The notes below the pieces were generated by a model. The model saw only the letters and a program-made list of their open reading frames with translations. It was not told the DNA's origin and did not search any database. A DNA stretch of 18,782 nucleotides from assembly GCA_029556545.1 (NCBI GenBank), contig JAKQEQ010000013.1, positions 1 through 18,782 of the forward strand. The letters run 5' to 3'. This stretch comes from Candidatus Hydrogenedentota bacterium (GTDB taxonomy: Bacteria > Hydrogenedentota > Hydrogenedentia > Hydrogenedentales > JAGMZX01). Shown piece after piece: positions 1 through 18,782 of this stretch; within the stretch, counting starts at the first letter, position 1, and the number at the start of each line of letters is the position of its first letter. The position numbers were made by a program, and so were the translations under genes.

Positions 1-20
1 GCGGGCGCCTGACCTTCGCC

Positions 21-1892
<1,872 letters not shown>

Positions 1893-1936
1893 CGCAGCAC
1901 TCCACACCGACTCGCACCGGAGGAGCGACGTGCTTC

Positions 1937-9168: not shown

Positions 9169-11294
9169 GCGCTTTCCTCCTTCGCCAGGTACAGGGTGAC
9201 CTCAACCCCGGCGTCATTGCAATTCCGAATCTCGATCGCGCCGCCGTGCGCCTCCAGAATGCGGCGGCAGATGGACAAGCCCAGTCCCGATCCCCGGGCC
9301 CGTGTCGTGAAGAACGGTTCGAAGACACGTTGCAGGTTCGCTTCCGGAATACCCGGCCCGAAATCACGCACGACAACACGCACGGTGCTCCCGGCATCGG
9401 TGGCCTGGATATGGACCCGCGCGCCGTCGGGCGCGGCTTGGCTCGCGTTCTGGATCAGGTTCTCGAGCACTTGCTCGAGGAGCGCCGGGTCGAAAGCCGC
9501 CTCGAGCGGCGGGCCGGGTTCAACCTCGATATCGGTGGCGGTCAACCCGCAGCGACCGCGGACCGCGACGCTGGCGTCGCGCAGCCATGCGCGCACGTCC
9601 CCGCGGCGAAGCTGCGGCGTCCAGGGCCGCGCGTACTGAAGCAACTGCTGCACCGTCTGCTCGACCCGCGCCACCTGGCCGAGCGCCTCCTCGACGGCGG
9701 CGCGGCGCGGGTCCTCTTGCGGCAGACCGCCCCGAATCACCTGCAGCGCTCCGCTGATTCCCGTGAGGGGGTTCCGGATTTCATGCGCCACGGAGGCGCC
9801 CAGTTCGCCCACCTCTGCCAAATGCCGGTTGCGAACCATGTTCTCATGCATGCGCCGCAAGTCCGTGATGTCGCTGATGACGCCGCCAATGCGGCGAGGG
9901 CGGCCCTGCGCATCATGGATCACGATGCGCCGGTCATGTACCCAGCGGGTCTCGCCGTCAGCGCGCACAATCGGGTATTCCATCTCGAAGCGGCCCGAAG
10001 CGCGCAGCAGGCAAAGCTTCTCTGCGACCGTCTCCCGGTATTCGGGATGCACGAACCGAACGAAGGCGTCCGGGCGTCCCACGAACTCGGAAACGGGTCT
10101 TCCGAAAAGCCGCTCCACCGCGGCGTTCACGTACAGCAGCGAGCCCACGTCCAGCGGCGCGGACCACACCACGTCATCGAGCGACATGAGGAGCGTCTGG
10201 AACCGCTGCTCGCTCTCGCGCAGGGCGTCTTCCGCTTCCCGGCGGGTTGCGCTGTCCCGGCGCAGCCGTTCGACCATGCGATTGAAGGCGCGCGACAGTT
10301 GCCCGAATTCATCCGCGCGTTCGGCGTCCGGCGCCGGCGCCAGTTCGCCGCTCTCGGCGATGCGGCCCACGTGGGCGGTCACGCTCGACAGCGGCTCGAT
10401 CACCATGTGACGCAACAGCAGCAACAGGAGCAGCAGGACGAACAACCCCACTACCCCGGCGCCTATGGCGTCGAGACGCATGGCCGCCCTGCCCTCGACC
10501 GTGATTTCGCGAGGCGTCTCCGAGTACAGCACAAACGCGGGCTTTCCCAGAACGTCCGGGATTATGACGCTCACTTCGAGGCGGGAATCGGTCTTCGTGA
10601 CGGAGAACGGCCCGTGCAGCGCCTGTATCAGCGTGGCGGGCGTATCCGAAGGCGTGCCGCCGGCCTCGAGCGGCGTTAGCCGCATGCGCACCTGCGTCTG
10701 CTCCGACAGCAACGTGAGGTAAGAGGCTTCCAGGAACCGCCCCATGACCACCGCGCCGCAAGCATCCCGGACGGCGTCGCGCCTCACCATCGGGCGGGAC
10801 GCCACCAACATAGGACCGCGACTGGTCAAGAGGACGCCCGCTATGGAACTCTCCGGGGTGGCGTGCCGCAGCAACGGATGCTCTCGCCCCCAGTGCTCCG
10901 CCGCAAAGTCCGGCAGTGAAATCGGTTCTCGGGATTTCAGGTCGTACACCGCGCCCCAGACCACCTTCCCGGCGGCGTTAACAAGGTAGAGCAGATTCAG
11001 GTTGTTGTCCGCGAAGGTCGCCGGAACAAGGTTGCGTTCCTCATAGGCCGAGGACGGCGCGGCCACGTATTCGCAGATATGCTCCTTCGCCGCCCAGTCG
11101 AGACAGAACTGATTCAGGTGCTGTACTTCGCGGCGGAGCGCCTGCACGCAGCGGGCCATGTCGCGCTGTGCCTGTTCCCGCTCGAGGTCCTCGAAACTGG
11201 GCTGGATAACCGCCTGCTGCAATAGAAAGTCCAGTCCCGCGTAAAGCGCGATAGTGAGCACGGCGATGCCGAGAATCTTGAGCCGAATGGACAC
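9165..11294 (-). CDS. Membrane sensor histidine kinase (CHASE4-HAMP-PAS-HisKA-HATPase)
   Basis: A 709-residue kinase, partner of the overlapping regulator. GTG 11294 is chosen: GGGAG lies 10 nt upstream, the first membrane segment (5-25) follows at once, and upstream in-frame codons come from repeats. A periplasmic region (about 30-270) resembles CHASE4 (FEDLEREQAQRD, NLNLLYLVNAAGKVVWG). A second membrane segment (276-296, Leu-rich) leads to HAMP (297-345), PAS (362-480), a HisKA domain with phospho-acceptor H504 in SVAHEIRNPL, and an ATPase domain with N-box ENLIQNASQA (N612/N616), DFGPGIP (G1) and GSGLGLSI (G2). It is NtrB-like in its catalytic half. The extracellular signal cannot be inferred. 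Confidence 0.94.
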   Translation of the reverse strand: MSIRLKILGIAVLTIALYAGLDFLLQQAVIQPSFEDLEREQAQRDMARCVQALRREVQHLNQFCLDWAAKEHICEYVAAPSSAYEERNLVPATFADNNLNLLYLVNAAGKVVWGAVYDLKSREPISLPDFAAEHWGREHPLLRHATPESSIAGVLLTSRGPMLVASRPMVRRDAVRDACGAVVMGRFLEASYLTLLSEQTQVRMRLTPLEAGGTPSDTPATLIQALHGPFSVTKTDSRLEVSVIIPDVLGKPAFVLYSETPREITVEGRAAMRLDAIGAGVVGLFVLLLLLLLLRHMVIEPLSSVTAHVGRIAESGELAPAPDAERADEFGQLSRAFNRMVERLRRDSATRREAEDALRESEQRFQTLLMSLDDVVWSAPLDVGSLLYVNAAVERLFGRPVSEFVGRPDAFVRFVHPEYRETVAEKLCLLRASGRFEMEYPIVRADGETRWVHDRRIVIHDAQGRPRRIGGVISDITDLRRMHENMVRNRHLAEVGELGASVAHEIRNPLTGISGALQVIRGGLPQEDPRRAAVEEALGQVARVEQTVQQLLQYARPWTPQLRRGDVRAWLRDASVAVRGRCGLTATDIEVEPGPPLEAAFDPALLEQVLENLIQNASQAAPDGARVHIQATDAGSTVRVVVRDFGPGIPEANLQRVFEPFFTTRARGSGLGLSICRRILEAHGGAIEIRNCNDAGVEVTLYLAKEESA

Positions 11295-11327
11295 GTACGA
11301 TTCACTCCCTCTCACGGCCTGGAATGC

Positions 11328-11356
11328 ATCATAGCACGAGAATGGGGCTGTGTGCA
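11328..11356 (-). promoter_or_regulatory. Extended -10 sigma70-type promoter for the kinase-regulator operon
   Basis: On the minus strand TGCACA (-35, 4/6) lies 17 nt from TATGAT (-10, 5/6), which is preceded by an extended-10 TGC. The predicted start near 11321 leaves a leader of about 27 nt before GTG 11294, enough for its ribosome site. Confidence 0.55.
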
Positions 11357-11377
11357 GTCGGTTTGCAGCACCCCCCG

Positions 11378-11445
11378 TCGTGGCGCTGGCGTCCCGCCCG
11401 TGATTGAGGACCACGGGCAAGATGCCCGTGCTACGCGTGCTGGGG
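11378..11445 (+). repeat. Dispersed palindromic (REP-like) element
   Basis: The element holds CCCGCCCGTGATT followed by a perfect hairpin, CACGGGC-AAGAT-GCCCGTG (7-bp arms 11412-11418 and 11424-11430, 5-nt loop). A diverged copy lies at 6660-6742. Its spurious translation (GVPPVIEDHGQDARAT type) is familiar from intergenic repeats of planctomycete-like and related genomes. Confidence 0.7.
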
Positions 11446-11449
11446 ACTC

Positions 11450-11501
11450 GGGGACAGGCACGTCTCCCCCGCGAAGCGCGGGGTCGCTTGTGCCAGTCCC
11501 C
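11450..11501. repeat. Long two-part hairpin (12-bp outer arms, 7-bp GC core)
   Basis: Outer arms GGGGACAGGCAC (11450-11461) and GTGCCAGTCCCC (11490-11501) pair at 11 of 12 positions. An inner stem CCCCGCG-AAG-CGCGGGG (11467-11483) is perfect with a 3-nt loop. It could also stop read-through between the divergent genes, but it lacks a T-run and looks like a dispersed element. Confidence 0.7.
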
Positions 11502-11538
11502 GTCCGTCCTCGTCCGTCCTCGTACTCGTACTCGATAC
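11501..11538 (+). repeat. Short tandem repeats next to the hairpin
   Basis: Two exact copies of CGTCCGTCCT (11501-11520) are followed by CGTACT twice and a variant CGATAC (11521-11538). They abut the hairpin arm exactly and may be part of the same repeat unit. Confidence 0.65.
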
Positions 11539-11619
11539 CCCCTTCCCCCGCACGTCGTTCTTGTCAATAGTTTTCCCATGCATTGGAACTGGTACGAACG
11601 TTCTGTGCTAAAAAAGTTC

Positions 11620-11648
11620 TTGACAACGGGAACTACCTGTGCTTTACT
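11620..11648 (+). promoter_or_regulatory. Sigma70-type promoter for the 11738-18597 gene cluster
   Basis: A perfect TTGACA (11620-11625) lies 17 nt from TTTACT (11643-11648; 4/6). It precedes ATG 11738 by about 85 nt and is the only strong candidate for the forward cluster. Confidence 0.65.
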
Positions 11649-11737
11649 AGAATCAGGCAGTCGTACGGACTGCCGAAGAATAAGGCTATAGGGGCCGACG
11701 ATAGACCGGGGGTAGTTTCGCCCGGGGGGAGTAGACC

Positions 11738-12247
11738 ATGCGAAACGCGATGGTTTTTCGGGTTCGGGGCGTGCTCAAGCGTTCCATATTGTCTCCAAGG
11801 CTGTTTGCGTGTCTATGCATCGCTTTCGGGGGGGGCGTGGCGCTTTTAATCGGTTTGCGGCTTGACCGCGCCGCCGCGGAGGCCGAAGGCGAGGCGATGT
11901 ACGCCGAAGGCGATGCGGAGGCAATCTCAAAGGCGGCTTCAGACATGTTGGCGTTGCGGATGTTCAATATGCGGCTGCCGGACGCCGCCGCGGCTCAACC
12001 GTATGAGTACGCGGATTTCGCGGAATTCCGGGACGAGTTCGAAAGCATCGGAGTGGACGTGGCCGAATCACCGGTCCAACTGGTGCTCGAGGCCTGTCTT
12101 CCGGATTCGAGGTACGGGACCGGTAAGGCGCTCTATGTGGACGCCGAACCCTATACCCGGCGCCGTGTCACGGGCGCCACGCCGGAAATGGAGAGTACGC
12201 TTGAACTGAGTCTTGACTCCCCCGGGAGCTTTGCGCCGCCATGGTAG
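11738..12247 (+). CDS. Single-pass membrane protein of unknown function
   Basis: A 169-residue protein that I do not recognise. ATG 11738 is well supported by a GGGGGGAG 6 nt upstream and by the promoter at 11620. It starts with a basic stretch (8-21) and one hydrophobic segment (about 22-42), then an Ala/Glu-rich helical region containing repeated AEGEA/AEGDA (47-60), and an acidic soluble remainder ending SPGSFAPPW. No catalytic motif is visible. Its last 7 nt overlap the start of the beta-helix gene (ATGGTAG), which suggests coupling. It may be an anchor or assembly partner of the secreted proteins downstream, from position only. Confidence 0.75.
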   Translation: MRNAMVFRVRGVLKRSILSPRLFACLCIAFGGGVALLIGLRLDRAAAEAEGEAMYAEGDAEAISKAASDMLALRMFNMRLPDAAAAQPYEYADFAEFRDEFESIGVDVAESPVQLVLEACLPDSRYGTGKALYVDAEPYTRRRVTGATPEMESTLELSLDSPGSFAPPW

Positions 12248-14361
12248 ATTCTCCTTTTCTGAGCGCGCCACTTCGGCGATATCTCCGCGACCGTCATCTC
12301 GCGATGCCGGTGCCTGGTCTACTGTGGGCGGTCTTACTGGTCTTCTTTCTCACCGCAAGCGCCGATGCTCGGATAATGGACGTGCCGCGGGAGTACGGGA
12401 CGATCCAGAAGGCCATCGACGCCGCGGAGGACGGAGACGAAATCATCGTGGCGCCCGGCCGCTACGTCGAAAACATCCACATGCTGGGCAAAGATATCGT
12501 ACTCCGCTCGACGAACCCTCAGGACTTCGCCACCGTCGAGGCTACAATCATCGACGGCAATCATGCGGGCACCGTAGTGACATTTCTGGGGCTTGAGACA
12601 AGGGAATGCGTAGTTAGCGGGTTTACTATAACCAACGGCTGGGCGCACCAAGGCGGTGGATTTCACGGGAGCAACGGGGACTTGTTCCCTGACCTCCCTT
12701 GGGCTCGACCGACAATCGAGTACAACATTATTCGCAACAACCGGTGTGGTTCGGATACGCAACTCGTATGGAGCGAGGGAGGAGGCATCTACCGCTGCCG
12801 CGGCGTAATCCGCGGAAACGTGATTGTAGAGAATGAGGCGCCCGGTCTTGAGATTTGTGATGACTGGCCGTATGACTGCGAATTCTCCGCGGGCTATGGG
12901 GGAGCACTGGATTCCTGCACGGGACTCATAGAACATAATCTCTTTGCGCGCAATCGCGCCAACTATGCCTCCGCGTTCTACGTAGGCAAGGCCACGATTC
13001 GAGGCAATATCGTCGTGGAGAATCTCGGCACCTCATGCATTTGGGGCGTCTTAGGCGACGTGTTCGAGGAAAACGTGGTTATCAACAATGAGATCGGGGA
13101 ACAATCCGGGGCGATCGAGGGGTTTACCGGCGACATCCTCAACAACGTAATCACCGGAAATACAGGCTACGGTCTGTTATCGGTAGCAAAGGATGGCCGT
13201 GTCGAGGGCAATTACATTGCGAACAACAGAAACGAGGTGGCTGGAAGCAATTACCAAATCTGGGGCGCCCGCAACGTATGGCGAAACGCCATTGTCGGCA
13301 CCCGCTCCGATAAGCTAGTCCGCGTACTGGCGGGTTGCAGGGACGTCCGGTACAACGTGATTTTCGATAATGCAAGTTCTGCTCTTGGCGGTTTAGTTCT
13401 TGGAGATTGCGAGGACATAATTGGCAACATAATCTGTGCTAATACATTTGCCAGAAGCATATTTGTCCTTTGTCGCGGAAAGTTCTATAACAATACGATC
13501 TTCGGCAATTCCACGCAAAATGTGAAGGGGTTGTTCGAAGACAGCCCGAACCTGGACATTCGCAATTGCATCTTCTGGAACAATACCACTCCCACAGGAG
13601 TGTTGTTCCCATCTGGTTTAACGCCCATCTACAGCTGCATCGAGAACGACGCATCAGGCGAACCGACGAATATCTCGCTCGATCCAAAGTTCGTGGACCC
13701 CGAGAACGGCGACTTCAGCCTCCAGCCGGATTCGCCGTGCATAGACGCGGGGGCCTATGTGCCCGAGGCGGCATTCGATATCCTGGGGCGTCCGCGCGGG
13801 TTCGACGGGAGCCCCGAGCCGCGCGGGGACGGTTCGGACTTCGATATCGGCGCGTTCGAGTTCTTCCGGCGCGTCGTCGGCGAGGGGGAGGGCGAAGGCG
13901 AGGCGGGCCTCCACAGCGCGGACATCGACGGGAACGGCCGCATTGCGATGCACGAGTTGCTGCGCGTCATCCAGTTCTACAACGCACGGGGGTACCACTG
14001 CGCGGAGGGAACCGAGGACGGCTACGCGCCGGGGGAAGTGGAGACGGATCCCATTCCCTGGGTCAACCCACTGGAAGTGGCTCGCTCGCCGTTGGTAGAG
14101 GCGTATATGGAGAAACACAACATCGAATTGCCCGAGATACCGGAGGAACACATCACGCTCTGGCGGGCAGTGGTCACGGGACAGTGGCCGAGTGAAACAA
14201 AGGCGGACGGCTGCGTTCCTCACTCGAGCGACTACTTCACCCAGGACTGGCGTATTGCGTTGACCGAACTGCTCCGGCTGATCCAGTTCTACAACACTCC
14301 CGGCGGCTATCATCCGTGTCTGGACAGCGAAGACGGCTTTTGCCCCGGCGCGGGAGAATAG
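12241..14361 (+). CDS. Secreted right-handed beta-helix protein with EG linker and C-terminal EF-hand (dockerin-like) pair
   Basis: A 706-residue exported protein. A signal segment lies at about 23-43 (ends TASADA). An opening module typical of beta-helix proteins (PREYGTIQKAIDAAEDGDEIIVAPGRY, 49-74) is followed by coils with repeated N-x-I-x-x-N/G patterns (about 80-460). The beta-helix closes with DPENGDFSLQPDSPCIDAGA and DIGAFEF. Then come an EG linker (13879-13902) and a tail with two similar units. Unit 1 has a canonical 12-residue EF-hand loop, DIDGNGRIAMHE (13921-13956), then LLRVIQFYN. Unit 2 has a 13-residue loop, DYFTQDWRIALTE, lacking calcium ligands, then LLRLIQFYN. ATG 12241 has GGGAG 12 nt upstream; an internal ATG at 12304 is possible. 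The beta-helix suggests a polysaccharide-binding or -cleaving role, unproven. Confidence 0.85.
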   Translation: MVDSPFLSAPLRRYLRDRHLAMPVPGLLWAVLLVFFLTASADARIMDVPREYGTIQKAIDAAEDGDEIIVAPGRYVENIHMLGKDIVLRSTNPQDFATVEATIIDGNHAGTVVTFLGLETRECVVSGFTITNGWAHQGGGFHGSNGDLFPDLPWARPTIEYNIIRNNRCGSDTQLVWSEGGGIYRCRGVIRGNVIVENEAPGLEICDDWPYDCEFSAGYGGALDSCTGLIEHNLFARNRANYASAFYVGKATIRGNIVVENLGTSCIWGVLGDVFEENVVINNEIGEQSGAIEGFTGDILNNVITGNTGYGLLSVAKDGRVEGNYIANNRNEVAGSNYQIWGARNVWRNAIVGTRSDKLVRVLAGCRDVRYNVIFDNASSALGGLVLGDCEDIIGNIICANTFARSIFVLCRGKFYNNTIFGNSTQNVKGLFEDSPNLDIRNCIFWNNTTPTGVLFPSGLTPIYSCIENDASGEPTNISLDPKFVDPENGDFSLQPDSPCIDAGAYVPEAAFDILGRPRGFDGSPEPRGDGSDFDIGAFEFFRRVVGEGEGEGEAGLHSADIDGNGRIAMHELLRVIQFYNARGYHCAEGTEDGYAPGEVETDPIPWVNPLEVARSPLVEAYMEKHNIELPEIPEEHITLWRAVVTGQWPSETKADGCVPHSSDYFTQDWRIALTELLRLIQFYNTPGGYHPCLDSEDGFCPGAGE

Positions 14362-14364
14362 GAG

Positions 14365-14396
14365 TCACCACAGAGGCAGAGAGGATACAGAGGAAG
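14365..14396 (+). repeat. CACAGAGGCAGAGAGG-type dispersed intergenic repeat
   Basis: A purine-rich stretch built on CACAGAGG / CAGAGAGGA / ACAGAGGAAG starts 4 nt after the beta-helix stop. Motifs of this kind are widespread non-coding repeats in environmental bacterial genomes (recalled, not searched). It lies where the 5' end of the following gene would be expected. Confidence 0.5.
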
Positions 14397-14413
14397 CACA
14401 AAGGCAGCGGGCA

Positions 14414-14521
14414 ATGAACGCGCGAATATACGAAAACATGCGCGGGGTCTGGCAGGACGGGAGCGTGGTCATCGACCTCGGGCCGCTGCCGGCGTCGTTC
14501 GATTACGTCTTCACGCCGGGG
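14414..14521 (+). pseudogene. 5' fragment of the large modular protein, one frame off
   Basis: From ATG 14414 this frame reads MNARIYENMRGVWQDG, then VVIDLGPLPASFDYVFTPG, then turns into low-complexity Ser/Arg-rich nonsense. By my count 32 of 36 codons here end in G or C, against 16 of 36 in the frame used downstream. Coding therefore appears to pass from this frame to the next near the GGGG at 14518-14521. One extra G would restore a continuous protein (FTPG then DLELLAMG). There is no signal peptide, so even this start may be internal to a longer ancestral gene. Confidence 0.6.
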
Positions 14522-14538
14522 ACCTCGAGTTGCTCGCG

Positions 14539-17500
14539 ATGGGCCTGCTCGATCACGTGGACATCCACACGGCAACGTACCCGGCGGGCGCGGTGCGCGG
14601 GCTGCCGGACTGTTCGGGCGTCATGGGCGAGCCGCCCGCGGCGTACGCGCCGGGGTGCCCGCTCGAATTCTCGGTGCGCATCGAGGCGTCGCAAGTGACC
14701 GTGACGGCCCTCGCGCTACGGGTCCAACTGCCGCCCGGCTGGACCTGCACGGACATCTCCGGTCCGGCGTACGCGGTCGGCCCGGAAGACCTCGAAACCT
14801 ACCCCGCCTCCGGGCTCATCGAACTGGCCTGGGTGCAGATTCCGACGTTCCCCGCGACGGTGACCTTCACCCTCGACGTGCCGCCCGAGGAATCGGGGAC
14901 CCGCTGGGTCTGGTACAGCGCCGAATTCCGGGGGTTGGGCGCGGCGCAATACGCCACGAACCAGGTGCTCCGCTTCGAGCCTTACGTCCCCGGCGAAGGA
15001 GAAGGTGAAGGCGAAGGAGAAGGCGAACCCAGCCCGCCGCCGTGCCCCGAACTGGCCGCCGAACGCACGCTCTACCTCGAGGACTTCCCGTCCCCCGGCG
15101 GTGGCGAAGGCGAAGGCGAGGGCGAAGGGCAAGAGCCGCAGTTCCTCTGCTCGATACCTCTTGACGGCGATTCCGTCGTACCGCCGGTCACGACCGACGC
15201 CTCCGGGCAAGCCCTGTTCGAGTGGCTTCCCGCCGGCCAATACGTCCGGATCACGATCACTCATGACGTCGCCAATCCGAACACGGTCTACCTGCACGCC
15301 GGCGAGCCGGGAACCAACGGACAAGCCATCCTCAATTTTGGCGGCCCGGAATCACCGGTGCAAGGCTGGCTGTCTTGGGAATCGTACGAGCAAGTGGCCG
15401 TGGACCACTACATTCAGGTGACCAGTTCGGCCTACCCGAACGGCGAAATCCGCGGCGACATCGACTGCCCCGTGTCCGAGGGCGAAGGCGAGGGCGAGCA
15501 ATTCCTTCGGTTCCTTGATAGCGAGGGTGAAGGCGAAGGGGAGGACGAGCAATGTCTTACCCCGCAGTTTCACTCCGCGGACCAGGATGGCGATAACCGC
15601 ATCAGTCTGTCCGAGTTGTTACGGGTGATCCAATTCTACAATGCGGGTTACCACTGCGCCGCTGACCCGGGGGCCACTGAAGACGGTTATGTTCCCGGGC
15701 CGGGCGCGAACCATGCTTGCTGCCCGCATGGCAGCGATTACAACAGCGCTGACTGGCTGATAGAACTCACCGAATTGTTACGACTGATTCAGTTTTTCAA
15801 TTTCGGGGCCTACGGATATTGTCCGGTCGGCATGGCCTGCTTTTGCGCGGACGCGGAGGACAACTTCAAGCCGATAACACTGCCGTGGGACATCCGGCTG
15901 CCCGCGTACCTGGATTGCTACATGACGTGTGTGCGCAAGAATGTCGTGAGCGAGGCGCAGAGCGGCGGGGGGCCGCTGGCGACGGTCTTTTCGGTCTTGG
16001 GGCCGATCGTGGGGGAAGGAGAGGGCGAAGGCGAAGGGGAAGGGGAAGGGGAAGGCGAGGGCGAGGGCGAGGGCGAGGGAGAAGGCGAGGGAGAAGGAGA
16101 AGGGCAGGATGTCTTTGATGCTCAGCATCTTGCGCACACGCTGCTTATCTTGTACGAAATGTATAATGAGCCTGAGTTCATGCAAGCGAAACTGACCGGA
16201 CAACAGGTGCTTGCCCAGGTGACGACCGGCGACGAGCGCACGTGGGAGGACCGGATGTTCGCGGCCTGGGAGAAGCTGCAATTCCGCAACGAACAGGATG
16301 ACGAATATGGCCGCTTCTTCACCATTACGGACGGCATCGAATACCTCGGCTGGCCCGAATCTCACCAAGCCCTACGGCACTTGCTTGTCGTTTACCTGCG
16401 GCACGCTTGCCGGATCGCGCCGGAGAACCTCGATTTGCTGCGGCAAACGCTCGCATATGCGTATTATCCGGTCCGGGATTGGATGGACCTCTTGCTCCGG
16501 GCCAATCAGCTGCCCGTGGCCTGTCCGTCCGAAGGCGAAGGGGAAGGCGAGGGCGAGGAGGGCGTCTGGGTGGCCATGGACGCGGATGAATGGACTTTCG
16601 ACAACCGTTACTTGGCGCATCCGTTGACGGCCATCGCGCTCGGCGAGGCGTTGAAGGAATCCGCGAACGACAACTACGACTGCCTCGCCCGCGACGGGAA
16701 ACGACTGTTCCTGGAGGTGGTGATGCCACGAGTGGCGGCGAACGGTTGGGCGGAGTTTCTCAGTCCGAACTATCACGGGGTGCTCTTGGACAAGCTGGAG
16801 TTGATGTTCAACCTGATCAGGGACGAGGAAGTCCACGAAGGCGTCAAGGCCCTGCTCGATTACACGTGGTACGACATCGCCGCCAACTGGTGGGAGCCGC
16901 CGGAAGCAAGCGGCATCGACCCGGAATGTCACGAGTGCGCCGACGCGTCGAAGGTAATGCTCGGCGCGCACAGCCGCGTGCCGACGTTCGGCACGGACCG
17001 GGGCCTGCTCCTGGACACGCTGCGCGCCTTCGGCTGGTACATCGTGCCCGAGGGCGACATGCCGCCGTATACGGAGTACGACTTCTCCGCGTTCGTCACG
17101 AGCTACCGCCCGCCGGCAGCGGATCTGGCGCGCTTCCGGGAGCCCATGGACCCGGACGACTACCGTGAGGTCCGCCAGACCTACGGCCCCGGGGAATACC
17201 AGTACGCCTACAACTTTATCACGGGGCGTTTTGCGCTGGCCACCGCCGCCCAGGAGTTTCTCGAACCGCACGACATGACGCTCACGGCCTATTTCCTGCC
17301 GCCCGCGCCCGACGGCGACATCTACGAGCCGCTGCCCGGCTACATCGTCATGGACGCCTGGGACGACCCTTACGCAAAGCTCCCCTCGAAGAAGGGGCTG
17401 AAGAACAGCTATCACGTCCCGGCCTTCGTCCTCGCGGACCAGGACAAGAACCTCGCGCTCTACCTCGCCGTGTCGCAGGTCTATGACGAAGGCCCCCGTT

Positions 17501-18597: not shown

Positions 18598-18782
18598 GAA
18601 GCTATCCCAAAACCGGAATATTCAGTTCGAGTTATGTGTTCATGTGGTATGCTAAAACTTACTGATGCTCAACTCGATTGGCTCGTCGAGCGTCTCCCGG
18701 ACGCTCCGCGAAGCCCCAAGGGAGGCCGTCCGCCGGCCGACAAGCGTAAAGTCATTCAAGGTATCTTCTGGATTCTCGACAA
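18598..18782 (+). mobile_element. Left end of an IS5-family-like insertion sequence (runs off the window)
   Basis: GAAGCTATCCCAAAACC at 18598-18614 looks like an IS5-superfamily terminal inverted repeat and follows TA (18596-18597) in a CTAG context, a common target for the IS427/IS1031 subgroups. A transposase start follows after about 50 nt. The exact boundary is inferred because the right end is outside the window. It interrupts the large modular gene. Confidence 0.7.
18649..18782 (+). CDS. IS5-family transposase, N-terminal part (truncated by window end)
   Basis: Forty-four codons are visible. LTDAQLDWLVERLPDAP followed by KGGRPPADKRKVIQGIFWILD is the typical N-terminal DNA-binding region of IS5-family (IS4/IS5 DDE superfamily) transposases; the catalytic DDE residues lie beyond the window. 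ATG 18649 is preferred; ATG 18634 in the same frame adds MCSCG. There is no clear ribosome site. The frame is continuous with the interrupted upstream gene, so a fusion product is possible. Confidence 0.85.
   Translation, partial: MLKLTDAQLDWLVERLPDAPRSPKGGRPPADKRKVIQGIFWILD

What the first reader, a model, noticed from the sequence alone, without database searches (positions are those of the whole stretch)
13879..14361. Asymmetric EF-hand pair behind an EG linker, shared by two proteins: a possible undescribed surface module
Both 13921-14292 and 15571-15801 carry SAD-x-DGxxRIxxxELLRVIQFYN, a (T/S)EDGY-x-PG connector, then SDYxxxDWxIxLTELLRLIQFxN. Unit 1 is a canonical 12-residue calcium loop. 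Unit 2 always has a 13-residue loop with Trp and few ligands. The layout recalls dockerin (paired EF-hands) but the sequence and asymmetry differ. With an EG spacer it looks like a dedicated assembly or anchoring tag.
Basis: partly seen in the sequence, partly recalled or inferred. Interest (0 to 1): 0.75.

Follow-up and report, generated by a model that had tools for sequence, protein, structure and literature searches.

The report
Dockerin-like surface-attachment module of Hydrogenedentota
A small calcium- and disulphide-type module that looks like a relative or look-alike of dockerins (the plugs that attach enzymes to cellulosomes) sits at the end of about 100 secreted proteins of this bacterium and recurs across its phylum, yet Pfam, NCBIfam and the papers searched do not describe it; it probably plugs secreted proteins into a complex on the cell surface.

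Summary
The ~95-residue module (called HyDM here) occurs 105 times in this genome, and in 41 of 68 Hydrogenedentota genomes, but in none of 318 sampled genomes outside the phylum. It is usually at the extreme C-terminus of secreted proteins with unrelated bodies, often behind an EG linker. A few copies sit at the mature N-terminus, so it is not a cleaved C-terminal signal. A confident model (pLDDT 94) shows two repeats of loop-helix-beta-hairpin without an entering helix. Nearly all its PDB neighbours with Z>=2 are dockerins, but weakly (Z at most 4.8). Four cysteines covary as two pairs. No Pfam or NCBIfam family matches above cut-off. HyDM-rich genomes carry a cluster of cohesin proteins, several membrane-anchored, and 10 of 11 carry a cohesin fused to HyDM. 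In a dockerin-rich relative without HyDM, a cohesin of the same cluster is fused to an ordinary dockerin. Best reading: a phylum-specific, disulphide-stapled dockerin-like attachment module; the cohesin receptor is inferred, not shown.

The parts
12304..14361 (+). HyDM protein 1: Sec-type signal peptide, beta-helix/NosD-like body, choice-of-anchor Q domain, EG linker, C-terminal HyDM with insert
   Evidence: start read from the sequence (MPVPGLLWAVLLVFFLTASADA)
13711..13863 (+). choice-of-anchor Q domain (NF041518), a domain that NCBI finds next to various C-terminal anchors
   Evidence: 30.1 bits, cut-off 25
13876..13905 (+). GEGEGEGE linker
   Evidence: read from sequence
13909..14052 (+). 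HyDM copy 1, unit 1 (12-residue Ca loop DIDGNGRIAMHE, helix LLRVIQFYN, hairpin GYHCA..TEDGYAPG)
14053..14196 (+). ~48-residue insert between the units, shared by four copies seen in this genome
14197..14352 (+). HyDM copy 1, unit 2 (13-residue loop DYFTQDWRIALTE, helix, hairpin with C..DGFC), stop at 14361
15154..15462 (+). CHRD domain of HyDM protein 2
   Evidence: PF07452 E 2.9e-13
15472..15555 (+). two short EG linkers before HyDM copy 2
15568..15855 (+). HyDM copy 2 (uninterrupted, internal in a longer open frame)
   Evidence: E 5.3e-46

Best explanation
HyDM is a dockerin-like attachment module. It consists of two copies of [calcium loop - helix - beta-hairpin], stapled by one or two intramodular disulphides, and is added to either end (nearly always the C-terminus) of secreted proteins, often through a flexible Glu-Gly linker. 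It probably folds in the oxidising, calcium-containing exterior and then docks non-covalently onto a receptor at the cell surface, most likely one or more of the membrane-anchored cohesin-domain proteins encoded in a conserved cluster, so that about 100 different proteins are displayed or assembled there. The cohesin-HyDM fusion protein of that cluster would act as an adaptor. Shown by computation: the family, its distribution, position, predicted fold and cysteine covariation. Inferred: calcium binding, disulphides, docking, and the identity of the receptor (receptor part alone about 0.4).
For: Genome census: 105 distinct copies; 91 of 93 with a readable end stop within 20 residues of the module; 74/79 with a signal peptide-like start against 41% of control frames. 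Bodies are unrelated: 66 Pfam families in 67 proteins. N-terminal copies directly after a signal peptide, e.g. L185, L168, L260, L255, L252. Model pLDDT 94.4, pTM 0.84: H15-26 E30-32 E40-42 H65-76 E80-82 E92-94, no entering helix. Dockerins take ranks 1-3 and 5 in Foldseek (E 0.39-2.3) and the top 13 and 16 of 17 rows in the second look (best Z 4.8, 2.9 A, 60 residues); the weaker window model found only two PDB chains, both dockerins. Cys pairs covary: 229 both/1 one/6 none and 186 both/2 one/48 none, p 3e-48 for the second. Cohesin cluster: SP-cohesin-HyDM, cohesin-TM and cohesin-Cys-TM-Arg genes side by side at G000:C33 42.1-44.6 kb. Three or more cohesins in 10/11 HyDM-rich against 13/57 other genomes (p 3e-5, not corrected for phylogeny). 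Cohesin-HyDM fusions in 10/11 HyDM-rich genomes. In G064 (20 dockerins, no HyDM) a cohesin of the cluster ends in a canonical dockerin instead. None of the genomes with 9 or more PF00404 dockerins is HyDM-rich (this lack of overlap alone has p 0.34).
Against: No binding data. Fold matches are weak in absolute terms (Foldseek E > 0.3, Z < 5). No sequence profile links HyDM to dockerin: hhalign probability 41% on 20 columns, against 90% on 21 columns for ordinary EF-hand pairs. Cohesins also occur in HyDM-free genomes, and several low-copy genomes (e.g. G007, G008, G014, G018) have HyDM but no match to the cluster cohesin profile at E<=1e-8. Canonical dockerins in the same cluster are equally plausible partners of these cohesins. 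G041 is HyDM-rich, but no cohesin-HyDM fusion was seen in the stretches read. All genome comparisons share phylogeny.
Confidence: 0.6

Rival explanations
1. HyDM is a C-terminal sorting or secretion signal read by a dedicated transport or processing machine, like PEP-CTERM, MYXO-CTERM or the type IX secretion CTD.
For: Extreme C-terminal position in most copies, unrelated bodies, a choice-of-anchor Q domain just before it in window protein 1.
Against: No transmembrane helix or basic tail after it (sequences). About eleven copies stand at the mature N-terminus. No exosortase match in G000, G040, G028-G031 or G039. SprA_N found above cut-off in 0 of 68 genomes (none of the control genomes rang either, so sensitivity is untested).
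Confidence: 0.12
2. HyDM binds an envelope component directly (polysaccharide, S-layer or peptidoglycan) and needs no cohesin receptor.
For: Calcium loops and conserved Trp would allow it; cohesins are absent by the profile used in several low-copy genomes.
Against: Dockerin-like predicted packing, fusion to cohesin domains and clustering with anchored cohesins.
Confidence: 0.18
3. HyDM is only a stabilising cap or a calcium sensor of extracellular proteins, without a common partner.
For: Small calcium-loop module with covarying cysteine pairs on very different proteins.
Against: Helix residues (ELLRxIQFxN) are conserved beyond what a cap would be expected to need: many are invariant or nearly so in both units across 77-78 sequences.
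Confidence: 0.1

Closest known systems
Dockerin type I (PF00404), cellulosomal and non-cellulosomal
   Same: Two calcium loop-helix units without entering helix, usually C-terminal on secreted modular proteins, cohesins in the same genome; its PDB structures are the nearest folds found.
   Different: HyDM has a beta-hairpin after each helix, two covarying cysteine pairs, unit-2 loops of 12-17 residues with Trp, E at the last loop position and ~95 residues; only 11/78 members touch PF00404, best E 9e-5. The PF00404-rich genomes of the phylum are other genomes.
NCBIfam NF041540 'GC-type dockerin domain-anchored protein'
   Same: Its name treats a dockerin as an anchor of proteins; one canonical dockerin of the cohesin cluster touches it weakly.
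   Different: No HyDM member matched it at E<=0.5.
EF-hand families (PF13405, PF00036, PF13202)
   Same: Unit 1 is a canonical 12-residue loop followed by a helix; 72/78 members touch PF13405 at E<=0.1.
   Different: No entering helix in the model; window member below the cut-offs.
MYXO-CTERM / myxosortase tags (PMC11980579)
   Same: A lineage-wide C-terminal tag on dozens of secreted proteins; the last cohesin of the cluster itself ends in Cys - transmembrane helix - Arg, as MYXO-CTERM does.
   Different: HyDM has no transmembrane helix and is a folded domain that also occurs N-terminally.

Membership tests
Dockerin (PF00404) | match to the family profile above its curated cut-off | tested here: not met
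   no PF00404 hit in the window proteins; 11 of 78 members touch it at E<=0.1, best E 9e-5 (bit scores of those members were not shown, cut-off 22.9); NCBIfam dockerin model none
Dockerin (PF00404) | two loop-helix (F-hand) units, no entering helix | tested here: met
   predicted only: H15-26 and H65-76 preceded by coil loops
Dockerin (PF00404) | both calcium loops 12 residues, near-symmetric | tested here: not met
   unit 1 12 residues in 220/226, unit 2 12 residues in 3/226
Dockerin (PF00404) | dockerin fold in three dimensions | tested here: inconclusive
   nearest structures are dockerins but E>0.3, Z<=4.8
Dockerin (PF00404) | cohesin domains encoded in the same genome | tested here: met
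   cohesins also present in genomes without HyDM
Dockerin (PF00404) | calcium-dependent binding to a cohesin | not testable with these tools
   needs a binding assay
EF-hand pair | helix-loop-helix with profile above cut-off | tested here: not met
   window member 20.8 bits vs cut-off 25; no entering helix in the model
Tripartite C-terminal sorting signals (PEP-CTERM, MYXO-CTERM, LPXTG) | motif + transmembrane helix + basic tail at the C-terminus | tested here: not met
   polar tails, N-terminal copies
Type IX secretion CTD | SprA translocon in the genome | tested here: inconclusive
   none over cut-off in 68 genomes, but no control genome rang

The most novel reading that the evidence does not exclude
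HyDM is the plug of a phylum-specific, non-cellulosomal cohesin-dockerin display system: a disulphide-stapled dockerin variant that took over from ordinary dockerins in part of the Hydrogenedentota and fastens around 100 different secreted proteins of one cell to membrane- or lipid-anchored cohesins.
Probability: 0.4. Interest if true: 0.85.

Novelty: new variant of a known kind. Interest (0 to 1): 0.7.

Why it matters
Little is known about how uncultured Hydrogenedentota arrange their surface. A single ~95-residue module marks about 100 exported proteins in one genome, so it defines a large part of a hidden surface proteome and lets annotators find it. If it docks on cohesins, it shows a large cohesin-dockerin-type network outside cellulose degradation, and gives an orthogonal, disulphide-stapled plug-and-socket pair for protein engineering. 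The receptor question is directly testable with three small cohesins from one gene cluster.

Tried and rejected
Literature: no paper in the library contains LLRVIQFYN; searches for Hydrogenedentes with dockerin or cohesin gave nothing on this module from titles and abstracts, and a Hydrogenedentota genome paper does not mention dockerin, cohesin or EF-hand. PDB sequence search: only chance hits. Viral contigs and plasmids: no relatives. Exosortase dependence rejected because the window's genome has no match. Type IX secretion: SprA not found over cut-off. The trypsin-like protease + HyDM gene followed by a ~450-residue secreted protein in low-copy genomes was considered as a processing pair, but the second protein only touches a 3-keto-disaccharide hydrolase-type domain and an alpha/beta-hydrolase below cut-off, and was not pursued. 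The fold model of the window copy itself was only medium (pLDDT 74), so a canonical copy from a relative was modelled.

Full report
WHAT WAS CHECKED. The window is one whole contig (G000:C131, 18,782 bases) of a 6.1 Mb, 195-contig genome. Related records in the named collection are Candidatus Hydrogenedentota where they bear a phylum name. A profile of 17 copies (A1) finds ~105 near-full-length copies in this genome, best E 4e-51.

THE FAMILY. In the phylum, 41 of 68 genomes have HyDM. Numbers differ strongly: 73 or more (the scoring cap) in G000, G040, G001 and G002; 37 in G003; 19-24 in G028-G031; 42 in G039; 19 in G041; 1-6 in thirty others; and nearly none in family f11. None of the 318 genomes outside the phylum searched as relatives has a match at E<=1e-4. 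Viral contigs and plasmids have none.

POSITION AND HOST PROTEINS. After removing duplicates, 105 copies come from the own genome and 137 from others. Of 93 own copies with a readable end, 85 lie within 5 residues of the stop and 6 more within 20. 74 of 79 complete own proteins have a signal-peptide-like start, against 41% of control frames under the same loose rule; 72 of 105 have at least three EG in the preceding 60 residues. About eleven copies stand at the mature N-terminus directly behind the signal peptide, then often an EG linker and a body (L185 on both strands, L168, L252, L255, L259, L260, L264 twice, L265, L079). The bodies of 67 own proteins touch 66 Pfam families: beta-helices, LRR, Ig, Kelch, P-domain, CHRD and others. 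The module therefore travels between proteins and is found at either end.

ANATOMY. Unit 1: 12-residue loop in 220 of 226 (D1, N/D3, D/N5, I8, E12). Unit 2: 13 residues in 108, 15 in 76, others 12-17; consensus DYNPQDWxIxLSE; Trp in 219 of 226. Each loop is followed by E-L-L-R-x-I-Q-F-x-N. The AlphaFold2 model of a canonical copy (pLDDT 94.4, pTM 0.84) shows loop-helix-hairpin twice and no entering helix. Cysteines covary in two pairs: 229 copies with both of the first pair, 1 with one, 6 with none; 186 with both of the second, 2 with one, 48 with none. I read these as two disulphides. The second pair is typical of EG-linked C-terminal copies (137 of 152 with ..DGFC) and absent from cohesin-fused (0 of 11) and protease-fused (0 of 6) copies, so there seem to be two subclasses.

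RELATION TO DOCKERINS. By sequence, no curated family is matched above cut-off by the window copies; EF-hand profiles are touched by most members and Dockerin_1 by 11 of 78; NCBIfam gives only scattered weak hits. Profile-profile comparison aligns only one loop-helix, better with EF-hand pairs than with the phylum's own dockerins. By predicted structure, dockerins dominate the neighbours: Foldseek ranks 1, 2, 3 and 5 (E 0.39-2.3), and 16 of 17 rows with Z>=2 in the second look, best Z 4.8 over 60 residues. These scores are weak in absolute terms; what speaks is that one family fills the list. So it is built like a dockerin in layout, but I do not file it as a member of PF00404.

COHESINS. PF00963 cohesins over cut-off occur in 58 of 68 genomes. 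A phylum-specific cohesin profile (A3) marks a conserved gene cluster. In the own genome, G000:C33 (locus L146 = C33:30001-50000), it reads: dockerin protein ending ..LTPNAPP.. (9822-10373, minus), dockerin + TSP3-type protein (10483-12057), cohesin-HyDM (12094-12858, PF00963 E 5e-7), cohesin-like + linker + C-terminal transmembrane helix and basic tail (12855-13910, matched by A3 but not by PF00963), cohesin + Cys-rich stretch + transmembrane helix + Arg (13917-14618, PF00963 E 2.6e-9). The last tail resembles the MYXO-CTERM plan of signature Cys, helix and Arg-rich end (PMC11980579), though no NCBIfam model matched it. Ten of eleven HyDM-rich genomes have a cohesin-HyDM fusion (in G003 with HyDM at the N-terminus); G041 does not in the stretches read. 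Anchored cohesins are read directly in G000, G040, G001, G002, G030, G031, G039 and G041; in G003 the match is weak (Pfam E 0.0033) and in G028 and G029 contig ends cut the genes. In other families one of the cluster cohesins ends in a transmembrane helix where HyDM-rich genomes have HyDM. In G064, which has 20 dockerins and no HyDM, the third cohesin of the cluster ends in a canonical dockerin (PF00404 E 3.9e-7). That is not the same gene position, so it shows interchange of the terminal module within the cluster, not strict replacement. Three or more cluster-type cohesins: 10/11 HyDM-rich against 13/57 others, p 3e-5, uncorrected for common descent.

ALTERNATIVES. A cleaved sorting signal is disfavoured by the N-terminal copies, the lack of a membrane helix, and the absence of an exosortase match in the own genome and several other HyDM-rich genomes. 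SprA of type IX secretion was not found, without a positive control. Direct binding to an envelope polymer, or a mere stabilising cap, cannot be excluded.

VERDICT. A genuine, apparently undescribed, phylum-restricted module; new variant of a known kind (dockerin-like); function as an attachment plug likely, its receptor inferred.

Noticed in passing
window 14362-14700 and 18660-18780: The frame of HyDM protein 2 has no signal peptide at its open start (possible 5' damage or frameshift), and its far end carries an IS5/DUF4096 transposase start at the contig end; the 1473-codon open frame may not be one intact gene.
   Followed up: partly
window 15856-15960; G000:C170:19350-19643 (L249): HyDM copy 2 is followed by a segment (..WDIRLPA.LD..M.CVR) also found after the HyDM of a paralogue on C170, so a small group carries the module internally with a shared extension.
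   Followed up: partly
window 1-1907 and several contig starts (C100, C34, C124, C191): Several contigs begin or end inside or next to GEGEGE repeats beside HyDM genes; the assembly seems to break at these repeats.
   Followed up: no
window 13711-13863: Choice-of-anchor Q domain directly before the EG linker and HyDM, a curated hint that this position holds an anchor.
   Followed up: yes
L149 7244-11119, L159 8831-12739, L157, L164: In low-copy genomes a conserved trypsin-like protease + HyDM gene is next to a ~450-residue secreted hydrolase-like protein.
   Followed up: partly
L146 9822-10373, L172 3981-4448, L178 5065-6125, L181 5529-6062: Small secreted dockerin proteins beside the cohesin cluster end in a conserved ..RYLxxLTPNAPP.. 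or similar tail of unknown use.
   Followed up: no
family f11 genomes (G048, G049, G063, G064): Canonical dockerins are abundant (20-63 per genome) where HyDM is absent.
   Followed up: partly
G000:C33, L146 13917-14618; L166 7126-7782; L172 8426-9130: Cohesin proteins with a Cys - transmembrane helix - Arg tail resembling MYXO-CTERM in a phylum outside Myxococcota; no NCBIfam model matches the tail.
   Followed up: partly
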